The notes under the pieces: generated by a model
What the model was told of the DNA's origin: nothing
The model's database searches: none
Seen by the model: the letters and a program-made list of their open reading frames with translations, nothing else
In this document: positions 19,801 through 28,800 of the stretch, one piece after another
Layout of the letters: every line of letters starts with the position of its first letter
Numbering within the stretch: position 1 is the first letter of the stretch
Assembly (NCBI GenBank): GCA_902728285.1
Contig: CACVBU010000590.1
Span: 372,001-436,000 of the forward strand
Reading direction: 5' to 3'
From: Clytia hemisphaerica
Taxonomy: Eukaryota; Cnidaria; Hydrozoa; Leptothecata; Clytiidae
DNA: 64,000 bases
Program-made: the position numbers and the translations under genes

Positions 19801-22800
19801 AACTGCCACTTTACCAGATCCAGATATGCTTGTCATACAAATCAAGAAGTTTCCAGTGTCAAAACTGTACCAAAATCGCACCACAGGTAATGGAAAGGTA
19901 TAATTCAAATGAAACATCAAAAATTGAAGGATTCAAAAACGAAATCAAAGCTTGTGAGAATATAATGAAAAGGCAAGACGAAGAAATAAACCATTTGAAA
20001 GCACAAGACGTCAATGTTATGGTCAACGAAATGAAAGAAACTATCGACACCAGAATAACCACGCTTGAAAAGAAGATTGAAAGCATCATCGAAAAGAAAG
20101 AAGAGAAAAGACCACCAATGAGCTACGCTAAAATCACATCCAAACACATCGAGAAAAACATTGGAGATGGGATTCGAAAAGAAAAACAGGAGGAGCAGCT
20201 GATTCGATCTACAGCACGCAACCTAATTTTTCATGGGATTGATGAATCGACAGATGAAACTGAAGCAGAAACAAAAATCGAGGACGAAGAATTTATCCAA
20301 GACAAAATTATTGGTCAGCGGCTCCATCTGAGGAATATAAAGATTACCGAGACGCAGCGGATCGGGAAATTTACGAAAGAAAGAGAAGATAAAGCGAGAT
20401 ACCGACCAATTAAAGTCACATTTACGAACGAAGAGGACAAGAACACAGTGTTGCAAGCAATAACAAAAGAAAAAGGCTTTCCTTACCGAGTGACAGAGGA
20501 TTTGACCAAAAATGAAAGACAGATAATTAAAGAATGGTGTAAGGAAGCCGAAAAAATGAATGCTAAAATCAAGGAAGAAAACACAAAATGGAAAGTCCGG
20601 GGGAGCCCGCGAAAAAAACTCTATTTCAAAAAGATCATTGTAAAAAGTACGAGCGGTTTATAGAGGCCCATGTGTCTTCACGGTGGCCTGCAAACCTGTA
20701 AAGCTTTATTATTATTATGACAGTGAATCTGATCACGATCAAAGGGGATCCAGAAACCCCCATCTTCAAAGCTCGCTACGTAGCAAAAGGCTATACTACG
20801 AAAGCCGAGAAGGGACAACCAAAAACTTTTTCAAAAACCCAAAATCTTTATCAAAAACCCAAAATCTTTTTCGAAAACCCAAAATCTTTTTTTTAAACCC
20901 AAAATCTTTTTTAAAAACCCAAAATCTTTTTCAAAAACCCGAAACCTCTTTTCGAATCCGAAACCTAATTTTTCAAATCCGAAACCTCTTTTCGAATCCG
21001 AAACCTACTTTTTCAAATCCGAAACCTACTTTTTCAAATCGAAAGCGAAATCGCTTGAGGTTGTTGGAGATAAGAAATCAAAACAAACAAAAATGGCTGA
21101 CAGGACACTGCAGGACATAGAGTATTGCCACTCTTGCAGGAGTATTGTTTTACCATCGTATGTCTACTGCAAACAATATGGGGTGCCCACAAGAAAGAAC
21201 GAATGTACTTTGACAGATTTTGATTCACACAGAAAAAGAAAATTAGCGAAGACAAGACCATCATCCACTAAAAAAACTAAACCACCTTATGCAGCTTCCA
21301 CTAGCACTAGCACTCGTACATTGACTTCCTCAAAGGATGTTTCAGTAAACGTTGGATTGGCTAGTTATGAAGAATCGATTGGCACATTAAAACCACGTAG
21401 AGGAAGAATGTCTGTTACAATCAAAGATTCATGTAATGCAATTGACTTAAAATATGCAGCCATCGACAAATACAGTAAACATGATCAGAACTTTTGTGGA
21501 TTAGAGGATTATGTCTTGCTCTACCCTGATTTCGCCTGTGTTTTTTCGTTGCCAGGGTCCAGGAAGCCTTTTACCGTAAAAGACTACAAAGTAGATCTAA
21601 ACAAACCTTATTCAAAGTGTATCTTTTTGCTTTGTCTCAAAAATGATTTTGATCATGTATTTGACAATTTGAAAAAGGATAATACCTCAAGTGAGAGATC
21701 CTCAGAAAGTGATTCAGAAAATCAACCTCGCAAAAATGATAAAATAAACAATTATGATCATTACGTACCACCTCCTGAACCAATTTATCAAGAACTTTTG
21801 CCAAATGTGGAGGAAAATCATCACTATGTCCCTGATGAGGATGCTAATCCTCCTGATACTAGTGGAGATGTATCTCGATTGATGCCAAATGTGGAAATCA
21901 AAACAACTACAGACAAACGTTCTACAGCTAACAACACAACAGCAGAAACACAAGCTTTACCGACAATTATCAATCTTGAAGAAACTCTGCCATATGTCGA
22001 CTCTTACGAAAGTAAAAGAGAAACAATTTTGAATTTGCTCAACTCATCAGAAGAGTTGTTTACTTTAACTATCAGGAGGAGAAAGATATATCTTGACACA
22101 ATGCAAAAACTCAAAATACACTGGGCAGAAAACATCAAGCCTTTTAAAGTTAAGTTTATTGGTGATTCTGAAGAAGCTGATGGAAGTGGTGTTTTGAGAG
22201 AGTTTTTTTCCTTGTTTTTTGATGACGCAAGAAACCACATTCTTGCTACTGGTAGTTCAGATAATTACACATTCCTTCACATTACTGAGAAGATGAAGTC
22301 GAAGGAAAATCATTATTTTGGAAATTTGATAGGCTTGGCTTTGATAAATGGTTTTGCTGGTCCAAGATACTTTTTGCCTGGAATAGCATGTAGATTGTTA
22401 AATGTTGAGTTTATACTACCAAACTACACGGATATTCCTTACTTTGAAGTGGCAGAAAAACTGGAAGCCTTAGTAAATTGTGAGAACGAAGAAGTTTTTC
22501 AGAATCTAATTGAAAATTTCACAGAAAGGTTTGCTGCTGGAGTTACAAAACCGAAAGTTCAATTTGCTGAGAATAATGATTTCATAAAGGACATATCTTT
22601 TCATTTTTGTATGTCTCAATGTAGTGAAGAAACAGAGCAAGTAGCTGATGGTATGCAAATCTTTGGTTTCAGAGCAGTAATGCAGCAGCATCTTGAAAAT
22701 AGCTTCAATGAGCTTATTCGCCCAGTAAAACAGTCCACTGAAGACTTACTCGAGGTATACAAAGAGAAGAAATACAGTGAAGACATTGAAAGGAAAACTG

Positions 22801-25800: not shown

Positions 25801-28800
25801 GAAACAAGACCTTCTTAGGTCTGCCTGATACAAGCCTTTTCAATGGACACGATAGTGAACATCCGATAGACAAAATAAAAGGGCTTTTATGGAGACCTCT
25901 AAAGGTCTCAATTTTGCGCGCTGTAAAAGGTCGCCAAAAAGGTCTCCTTCAAGACTTCTAAAGGCTCACTGGTTTGAAACAAGACCTTTTTAGGTCTGCC
26001 ATTTACAAGCCTTTTCAATAGACACGATAGTGAACATCCAATAGACACGAAAAAAAGGGCTTTTATGAAGACCTCTAAAGGTCTCGATTTCGCGCGCTTT
26101 AAAAAATCTAGAGCAGTGTAACGACTTCTTTCGAATTTTCGAATGTTTCGAACGTCGTTCGAAATTCGAAAAGTTCAAAATTGGATCCAGAGTGCAAAAA
26201 TACAATCATAACAATTTTGGAGCCAAAAGGGTGAAGACGGTCTGAAGCTAGTCTGAAAAGCGAAAAGAAAAAAAGGTAAGTAACACACTCTTTACGTAAT
26301 AAAATTTCTTAAAATCCTTTTTTTGTCAACTGGAGCTATATATCTTTTGATGTGATGAATCCTTTTTTCTTCCACAAACATGGAGCTTTATTGTTGCAAA
26401 TACACCCATGGAAAGTTTTGGCGAGGCTTGATCGAATTTTGTGCTTGTATTTATTGATCCTACTAGCTAGGCTTTTACGAAATTTTATTTTATTTTTTGT
26501 GCAATATTCGTTTCAAATCTTTTATTATATTATTTTTTTCAGCTTCGACATTACTGTAACGAGAATCTAACCCAACATTATGTGAGCCCCCATGTCACTG
26601 TCGCTGTAAATCCAACCATCACATTTTCTAAACGTTTGTTTAAAGTATGGCCAGAACAAAATCGACTCTCTGCAGAGGTAAGAATTGAATATATTTTGCC
26701 CAATTTTTTTTTTTTTTTCTGGAAAACTTTGAAGAGCTGGATCAAAAGTAAAGAATTTTTCAAATTTTCTAAATGACATTTCGATGAAGTAATAGGCCTA
26801 AAAACCAGTTTTGTGATCTTTATCTCACTTCTCTTGAATTTTTTAGCACGCAACTATCCAGCTTTCATGTTAGCACGCAACTATCCAGTTCGTTAAAGTT
26901 TCGTGTCACCGTCACCAACAAGCGTCTATTCAATTTTCAACTCTTGGACGTTTGTTTGACAATCTGGTTTACAGTCGTACTTATATAAACAGCTAGACTT
27001 TGTCGTGAATCATCATCATTGTCATGAACAAACTGGACACGTACAATACATCTCTTGTACGTTTCGATATCAAAGAACTATTATATACATAATATAATGG
27101 ATATTTGTTAGAAAAATATCTAGAAATCCTATTGGGTATAATATATCTTTTAGATTGAAATTCTTGAATGTATTTTTATTCTCTTCTTCTCTTAATTATT
27201 GTTAGGTTTTGTTTCAGCAATTTAGGCCTTTTGAATATTACAAACCTTCAAAAACGAGTACTAAACATAGTTTCTTTTAGGCACTAATATGGTCTAATTT
27301 TGAACAAGACCCCAAACGTTCTGCGATAACGGACTTTTTTCGAAAGGTCTCGTTTAAAATAAGACCTTTTAGGTATGATAGAATCAGAACCCTTGAAGTC
27401 TCTTTCGGGATCTAGAATAGTCTCTATTGGGCGCGCTAAAGGTCTGATTTAGAACAAGACCCTAAACGTTCTGCGATAACGGACTTTTTTCGAAAGGTCT
27501 CGTTTAAAATAAGACCTTTTAGGTATGATAGAATCAGAACCCTTGAAGTCTCTTTCGGGATCTAGAATAGTCTCTATTAGGCGCGATAAAGGTCTTATTA
27601 AAATCAAGACCTTAAGGTCTGATTTAGAACAAGACCCAAAACGTTCTGCGATAACGGATCGTTACCTGATACACCCAAAAGGTCTTAATAAAGACCTTTA
27701 AAACTGAGAGTGAGAGGATTCTTCTTGAAAACCCATCAATACATCCATGGATTGGTAAACCATAGGGCTTTAATTTATCGTATCCATCTACATGCCAACA
27801 ATGATTCGGACCAAGCGATGAATAATTTCGTCTATTAAGTCTTCTTGCCCTCCGTTGTTCAGTACCCTCTGGGTCAATATCTCTCAACAGTTTCATGACT
27901 AGATCCCTCTTAACTCTTATCCCATAACTGACTTTTAGTCTATTCCAAAGTGCACGATAACCCTTTATACAGCCAGGACCCCTTATTTCATTTTCAATAA
28001 TTCGGCACAATGCCTCAACTGAAATGTTTCTCGTTCGTTTTTTCAAGCCATAGATTTTCAGACGTCTTTTCAATGTTCTCAGACTCATGTCAATTCCATG
28101 ATAAATTCTCAAAAAAACAACTATGTAGTCATATTTGTAATGCTTATTAAAATAATGTTCTATAATAGCCCGCTCATCAGTCAATTCAGGTACAACAGGG
28201 GTGTCTTCAGTGGCAAAGGTCACTCCGCAATTAGTACAAAAGAAGGAGTCTACCTCAGCAGCAGTCCCGCACTGAGTGCAATAAACCATTTTGACACTCC
28301 CATTGATAAGGTCACGACAACGCGGTTTGAAGAAAAAAAATCAATTTTATTTAATATTTCAATTTTTAAAAAAGATTTCGGGTTTGTTTTTTATGAAAAG
28401 ATTTCGAGTTTTTAAAAAAGATTTCGAGTTTTTAAAAAAGATTTCGGGTTTTTTTATAAAAAGATTTCGAGTTTTTAAAAAAGATTTCGAGTTTAAAAAA
28501 AAAAGATTTCGGGTTTTTTTATAAAAAGATTTCGGGTTTTTTTATAAAAAGATTTCGGGTTTTTAAAAAAGATTTTGGGTTTCTTACAAAAATTCGGGTT
28601 GTCCCTTCTCGGCTTCCATACTATACCCAGAAATAAGGTATTGATTATGCAGAGACATTCTCACCAACAGCAAGGGTGGAATCTGTTAGAATCTTGACAC
28701 AATTAGCTATTCAGAATGATTGGGTGATGCACCAGATGGATGCACCAATGGAATATGATGTTTATGTTGAACAACCTGAAGGATTCAAAGTAAATGGTGA

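What the first reader, a model, noticed from the sequence alone, without database searches (positions are those of the whole stretch)
20797..28620. A DNA transposon that carries a HECT-type ubiquitin ligase beside its integrase
Exact borders (24-bp inverted ends, 6-bp CTATAC duplication) enclose only two genes: a HECT protein with zinc-ribbon-like N-terminus and a zinc-ribbon/HTH/DDE integrase of the IS3EU-like kind. A ubiquitin ligase as a standing partner of a cut-and-paste transposase would suggest that the element manipulates host protein turnover or its own transposase level. That both genes lie inside one bounded element is seen here; the functional idea is inference.
Basis: partly seen in the sequence, partly recalled or inferred. 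Interest (0 to 1): 0.85.

Follow-up and report, generated by a model that had tools for sequence, protein, structure and literature searches.

The report
Jumping gene carrying a ubiquitin ligase
A jellyfish-like animal genome holds a whole group of cut-and-paste jumping genes whose second gene, facing the transposase gene, is a HECT-type ubiquitin ligase, so these elements appear to carry their own tool for tagging proteins.

Summary
Confirmed and extended. Window 20797-28620 is a bounded DNA transposon: TA..TA ends, 24-bp inverted ends (22 of 24 match), CTATAC duplication, inserted in a copia pol frame. It holds a HECT gene and an IS3EU-type integrase gene facing each other. This copy is dead: HECT is frameshifted and the integrase is split by a 2.2-kb insert. 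The same unnamed assembly (closest annotated protein: Clytia hemisphaerica) holds intact two-gene elements of this family (5,568 bp) and of a second family (7,680 bp). Genome-wide, 32 of 49 HECT-like loci have such an integrase within 12 kb (0.63 expected), 31 of the 32 convergent. 16 of 19 near-full-length integrase loci of the closest group (4 of them this family) have a convergent HECT gene. HECT fold and catalytic cysteine are conserved between families. So HECT is a standing part of a clade of IS3EU-like elements, not a stray passenger. Its substrate is unknown: my best guess is a host factor restraining the element, with the integrase complex a close rival. Between families HECT is constrained; among recent copies no significant constraint shows.

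The parts
20791..20796 (.). target-site duplication CTATAC, left copy
20797..20820 (+). left terminal inverted repeat TACGAAAGCCGAGAAGGGACAACC
20819..21044 (+). left subterminal array, 20-21-bp units (CCCAAAATCTTTTTCAAAAA-like)
21093..23153 (+). HECT ubiquitin-ligase gene: zinc ribbon, ubiquitin-like region, linker, HECT; broken in this copy. ORF to 22841, out of frame to about 22966, then the catalytic-Cys part to a stop at 23151-23153
   Evidence: intact relative P0001 (688 aa); HECT fold
23584..23721 (.). fold-back repeat (41-nt arms, 95%) between the two genes
24798..25480 (-). integrase gene, 3' part (second catalytic D and the E); one frameshift near 25427-25433
25482..27712 (.). nested 2,231-bp insert with CACTCTCAG inverted ends (EnSpm/CACTA-like, name from recall), cutting the integrase gene
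27736..28289 (-). integrase gene, 5' part: zinc ribbon, HTH-like region, first catalytic D (HVDG)
   Evidence: conservation
28363..28600 (-). right subterminal array, about 11 units of 20 bp, inverted relative to the left array, 18 of 20 consensus letters shared
28597..28620 (-). right terminal inverted repeat (TATGGAAGCCGAGAAGGGACAACC read inward)
28621..28626 (.). target-site duplication CTATAC, right copy

Best explanation
This is a dead copy of a two-gene IS3EU-like cut-and-paste transposon whose regular second gene is a HECT-type E3 ubiquitin ligase. Shown: exact borders; a DDE integrase-like transposase; a HECT fold with conserved catalytic Cys; both genes open in bounded elements of two families; and a convergent HECT-integrase pair at 31 loci. 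Inferred: the integrase excises and inserts the element, the subterminal arrays serve as its multiple binding sites and as promoters, and HECT is made from the opposite end as an accessory enzyme. Mechanism I commit to (about 0.45, inference): HECT marks a host nuclear factor that silences or blocks the element, for removal. The HECT-as-standing-component claim itself I hold at about 0.93.
Against: No substrate or activity is known. Within this family HECT shows no significant constraint (window versus L033: 34 nonsynonymous, 13 synonymous, ratio 0.66, p=0.20; L032 8 and 1, L034 5 and 0, L042 1 and 1), while the integrase does (window versus L033: 7 and 10, ratio 0.18, p=0.0007). 17 of 49 HECT-like loci had no integrase found within 12 kb, 1 of the 32 linked was tandem, and 3 of 19 near integrases had no convergent HECT. 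More distant integrases mostly lack a detected HECT (near-full-length: 3 of 25 at 40-50% identity, 0 of 19 below 40%). P0001 itself does not match Pfam HECT, and P0003 falls below the cut-off; only P0002 and P0004 pass it. The C-lobe of the fold model is of low confidence.
Confidence: 0.8

Rival explanations
1. Same element, but HECT acts on the element's own integrase complex: it limits transposase dose, or marks the stable integrase-DNA complex for removal after insertion (compare ClpX dismantling MuA, recalled).
For: Both proteins begin with a zinc ribbon of one kind. The ribbons of 4 HECT relatives (P0001, P0002, P0003, P0005) score 24-27 bits with a profile of 58 integrase ribbons, and 0 of 993-1000 Cys-preserving shuffles per protein reach that. 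Each gene starts about 300 bp inside its own end, behind the same repeats (296 and 331 bp). The pairing recurs at 31 loci.
Against: Short zinc ribbons are common, and no unrelated ribbons were tested as a control; the window's own HECT ribbon, one Cys short, scores only 4.1 bits. HECT evolves faster than its supposed partner. Many integrase lineages in the same genome have no detected HECT.
Confidence: 0.35
2. HECT is a captured host gene or passenger without a role for the element.
For: No significant recent constraint within the family; HECT-like loci without an integrase nearby (17 of 49).
Against: Same orientation relative to the integrase at 31 loci; open frames of 679-723 aa in three families 34-40% identical (borders seen for two of the three); catalytic Cys and C-terminal GFG kept in them.
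Confidence: 0.06
3. Chance neighbours: HECT genes and integrases merely cluster in repeat-rich DNA.
For: Some HECT loci have integrases 12-60 kb away (7 places).
Against: Four bounded elements of this family with matching 6-bp duplications, and one of a second family, hold both genes inside; 31 of 32 convergent.
Confidence: 0.01

Closest known systems
IS3EU / GingerRoot DNA transposons (Repbase superfamily; passages of PMC10045372 seen)
   Same: TA..TA ends, 6-bp target duplications, integrase-like DDE transposase
   Different: A HECT gene as standing second gene: the words HECT and ubiquitin do not occur in that paper's main text; Repbase entries were not seen
Fungal TET+ IS3EU families with alpha-kinase and TET/JBP genes (passages of PMC12730594 seen)
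   Same: IS3EU element with a second enzyme gene (alpha-kinase) in the orientation opposite to the transposase; ends TAYGG..CCRTA fit both ends of L032 and L033 and the right end of the window copy
   Different: Kinase and dioxygenase there, HECT ubiquitin ligase here; fungi there, a hydrozoan-like genome here; HECT and ubiquitin do not occur in its main text
HECT E3 ligases (NEDD4, TOM1, HUWE1 and others)
   Same: HECT fold and catalytic Cys with C-terminal GFG
   Different: Zinc ribbon plus ubiquitin-like region at the N-terminus, transposon-borne, low identity (about 14-18% in the listed matches)
KAONASHI (Ulp1-bearing Mutator-like elements of plants; search listing and abstract starts only, details recalled)
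   Same: Transposon carrying a gene of the ubiquitin/SUMO system
   Different: Protease that removes SUMO, plant elements, other transposase
RAG1, whose RING domain is an E3 ligase (recalled, no call)
   Same: Ubiquitin-ligase activity tied to a DDE recombinase
   Different: RING domain within the recombinase itself, not a separate HECT gene

Membership tests
IS3EU | TA..TA termini | tested here: met
   Window, L032, L033, L034/L035 and L036 ends; definition from passages of PMC10045372
IS3EU | 6-bp target-site duplication | tested here: met
   CTATAC, GGTTCG, CATAGT, CAAAAC, CTTTAG in 5 of 5 two-ended long elements. Of 8 shorter two-ended elements, 6 also show a 6-bp repeat in the printed flanks (L037, L038, L039, L043, L046, L047) and 2 do not (L044, L045)
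IS3EU | integrase-like DDE transposase related to IS481/IS3 | tested here: met
   Pfam rva_4 integrase core in both pieces; D, D, E invariant in 15 of 15 aligned; weak IS481 similarity of relative P0008, E=1.1e-05, far below its curated cut-off
IS3EU | clusters with Repbase IS3EU transposases rather than GingerRoot, IS481EU or Ginger | not testable with these tools
   No Repbase sequences at hand; PMC10045372 itself does not separate IS3EU from GingerRoot
HECT E3 ligase | HECT fold | tested here: met
HECT E3 ligase | catalytic cysteine in the C-lobe | tested here: met
   7 of 7 aligned relatives; lines up with a Cys of TOM1 in a stretch that is not significant by itself
HECT E3 ligase | ubiquitin-ligase activity | not testable with these tools
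   needs biochemistry

The most novel reading that the evidence does not exclude
A clade of eukaryotic cut-and-paste transposons regularly carries its own HECT ubiquitin ligase, using the slot opposite the transposase where fungal relatives keep an alpha-kinase. IS3EU elements may then be built as transposase plus an exchangeable protein-modifying enzyme that disarms host restraint or takes apart the insertion complex.
Probability: 0.4. Interest if true: 0.88.

Novelty: new variant of a known kind. Interest (0 to 1): 0.76.

Why it matters
Cut-and-paste transposons are usually thought of as transposase plus ends. A regular, long-conserved ubiquitin-ligase partner would mean that some carry their own tool to change host or transposase protein levels. 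Intact copies in a genome whose nearest annotated protein match is a laboratory jellyfish make this directly testable. Together with the fungal alpha-kinase IS3EU elements it suggests a general two-enzyme design.

Tried and rejected
Viral and prokaryote collections: scans with P0001 (viral), A3 (viral), A2 (viral) and A3 (genomes) found no relatives. Model of P0001 on 7 sequences was too poor (pLDDT 47.2). Its more confident part (about residues 84-190) resembled ubiquitin-like folds (RA, PB1, SATB1 N-terminal domain) only at E 0.029 or worse, so no fold claim is made for that part. The iterated protein search gave two further HECT relatives and no longer listed P0005-P0007. BLAST missed the C-terminal match between the two families' HECT proteins; a direct alignment shows it. 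The contig-length coincidence allows 0.08 matches over all nine HECT contigs, so it is weak alone; the genome census carries the argument. Loci L048-L077 (another rva_4 lineage) showed no HECT match in the roughly 1.5-kb flanks held, too short to judge. L001-L031 and L078 were fetched but not analysed (L078 stops short of the integrase later placed beside the C869 HECT). Literature: searches listed no paper whose title or abstract start describes a HECT gene in a DNA transposon. Of the papers listed, only three were opened, for passages; the word HECT does not occur in their main texts. Only the open-licence PMC library was searched, and not Repbase or Dfam. A control with all host HECT genes (PF00632) did not complete.
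Full report
Observation. The element at 20797-28620 is exact: 24-bp inverted ends (22 of 24 identical) and CTATAC on both sides. Joining the flanks with a single CTATAC gives a copia reverse-transcriptase frame across the site, with one in-frame stop. Just inside the ends lie about 20-bp tandem units, inverted to each other. At up to 3 mismatches the shared unit occurs in the window only in these two arrays; at 4 mismatches there are seven places elsewhere. The HECT gene starts 296 bp from the left end and the integrase gene 331 bp from the right end; they converge.

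State of this copy. HECT is out of frame from about 22840 to about 22966 and has Tyr for one zinc-ribbon Cys. The integrase is cut by a 2,231-bp insert with CACTCTCAG ends and has one more frameshift.

What the genes are. The integrase matches the Pfam integrase core rva_4 in both pieces and has 863 relatives in the protein collection, of which the best 120 were listed. The catalytic D, D and E are invariant in the 15 relatives I aligned. HECT: P0001, annotated Clytia hemisphaerica, is a 688-aa relative, 95% identical to the window frame. The HECT assignment rests on P0002 (Pfam HECT 1.2e-07) and P0004, which pass the Pfam cut-off, and on a fold model of P0002 whose 50 listed PDB matches by Foldseek are all entries of HECT ligases. 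The best structural alignment covers model residues 282-525, mainly the N-lobe; parts of the C-lobe model are of low confidence. P0001 alone does not reach the Pfam model, and P0003 is just below the cut-off. The catalytic Cys is kept in 7 of 7 aligned proteins.

Other copies. The own assembly (417,433,876 bases, 951 contigs, unnamed) answered late. The 19-bp inner end with up to 3 mismatches has 88 forward and 86 reverse places, against 39 and 44 for the backward control; only the first part was listed. I fetched 16 stretches. Of this family, the four two-ended long copies seen (window; L032, duplication GGTTCG; L033, CATAGT; L034/L035, CAAAAC) and the one-ended L042 carry both genes. L033 has both genes intact and lies on a contig of the same length (829,990) as that of P0001. 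L043, L044 and L045 are short with neither gene; L040 has an end and an integrase remnant but no HECT match; L041 has an end and no match. L036 belongs to a second family (ends in GACATCC, duplication CTTTAG, 7,680 bp) and carries an open 420-aa integrase and an open HECT gene of 679 aa. HECT is 40.1% (649 aligned) and integrase 57.4% (413 aligned) identical between the two families.

Census. A search with P0001 gave 73 places, which I grouped into 49 loci. Integrase places came from PF24764 (150 of 596 candidates scored) and P0011 (115 of 518 candidates scored), grouped into 223 loci. 32 of 49 HECT loci have an integrase within 12 kb, against 0.63 expected under uniform scatter, and 31 of the 32 are convergent. 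As a control for clustering, PF24764 places are 15 within 12 kb of HECT loci and 7 at 12-60 kb. From the integrase side, counting matches of 260 aa or more: 16 of 19 loci at 57% or more identity to P0011 have a convergent HECT, 4 of 10 at 50-57%, 3 of 25 at 40-50%, and 0 of 19 below 40%. Fragments: 1 of 12, 1 of 2, 0 of 20 and 0 of 2. By my reading of the table, 4 of the 16 are copies of the window's family, so 12 of 15 others have HECT; the three without are on C234, C35 and C396. Seven of the 114 rva_4 places found only by PF24764 also lie near a HECT locus. All these are lower bounds, since both searches scored only part of their candidates and the HECT query was P0001. Borders were seen for only five of the linked loci; the rest are neighbours in the right orientation.

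Outside this genome. HECT P0004 and integrase P0011 are each on a contig of 9,736 bases, a coincidence expected 0.0018 times for that contig and 0.08 times over all nine HECT contigs, against 118 integrase contig lengths. I could not fetch that contig. Both are close relatives of the window's genes. In a tree of 109 integrases (the window and 108 of the 120 listed) the window falls with P0011 in a set of 8 rows (support 99).

Selection. Window against L033: HECT 34 nonsynonymous and 13 synonymous differences (ratio 0.66, p=0.20), integrase 7 and 10 (ratio 0.18, p=0.0007); the two genes differ at p=0.037. Against L033, HECT of L032, L034 and L042 differs by 8, 5 and 1 nonsynonymous and 1, 0 and 1 synonymous changes; their integrases by 3, 0 and 2 nonsynonymous and 4, 2 and 3 synonymous. 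C152 against C643: HECT 0.56 over 306 codons (p=0.28; the C643 frame ends early), integrase 0.13 (p=0.11). Between families HECT gives 0.20-0.29 with dS near saturation; for the integrase dS was saturated and no ratio came out. So HECT is constrained over long times, but recent copies do not show it. This fits faster, host-facing evolution, or decay after insertion of copies complemented in trans; the data do not decide.

Zinc ribbons. Four HECT ribbons score above all Cys-preserving shuffles with an integrase-ribbon profile built from 58 of the 120 listed integrases (0 of 993-1000 per protein). The window's own HECT ribbon, one Cys short, scores only 4.1 bits. This is a lead for a shared docking or DNA contact, not proof of common descent, since zinc ribbons are short and common and no unrelated ribbons were tested.

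Known systems. PMC10045372 (passages seen) gives IS3EU as TA..TA ended with usually 6-bp duplications. PMC12730594 (passages seen) says that fungal TET+ IS3EU families place a TET/JBP gene between transposase and an alpha-kinase gene in opposite orientation. The present elements have the same opposed layout with HECT as the enzyme. I found no paper on HECT in a DNA transposon in the open library (listings and abstract starts); Repbase was not available.

Mechanism. Shown: two-gene bounded element, conserved pairing and orientation, HECT fold and Cys. Inferred: HECT is an active E3; it acts in the nucleus; its target is a host restraint factor (about 0.45) or the integrase complex (about 0.35). 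Neither was tested.

Noticed in passing
window 25482-27712: Nested 2,231-bp insert, first 13 bp of its ends identical (CACTCTCAG...), many AAGGTCT-type internal repeats; looks like a non-autonomous EnSpm/CACTA-like element, perhaps with a 2-bp CT duplication (my reading of the flanks).
   Followed up: partly
window 23584-23721: Fold-back repeat with 41-nt arms, 95% complementary, between the two genes.
   Followed up: no
window 38638-39618: ORF of 326 aa with a GIY-YIG domain (Pfam 8.2e-05), possibly of a Penelope-like element.
   Followed up: no
window 11531-12466 and 19545-20663: Two similar-looking ORFs with a weak PHD-like finger (below the Pfam cut-off), looking like retrotransposon ORF1 proteins.
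   Followed up: no
window 18611-19265: Tandem array of about 115-bp units, 5.9 copies.
   Followed up: no
L037, L038, L039, L046, L047: Shorter two-ended elements (about 1-3 kb) with the second family's GACATCC ends and matching 6-bp flanks, without detected HECT or integrase: likely non-autonomous derivatives. L046 has two left ends 162 bp apart.
   Followed up: partly
L044, L045: Two about 0.2-kb elements with this family's ends show no 6-bp duplication and have identical outer flanks (AGGTTTTT / AACCATGG), so they may ride inside a larger repeat.
   Followed up: no
G000, PF24764 search: At least 150 integrase places of the rva_4 type, 114 of them outside the loci found with P0011; what these other lineages carry beside the integrase was not read.
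   Followed up: no
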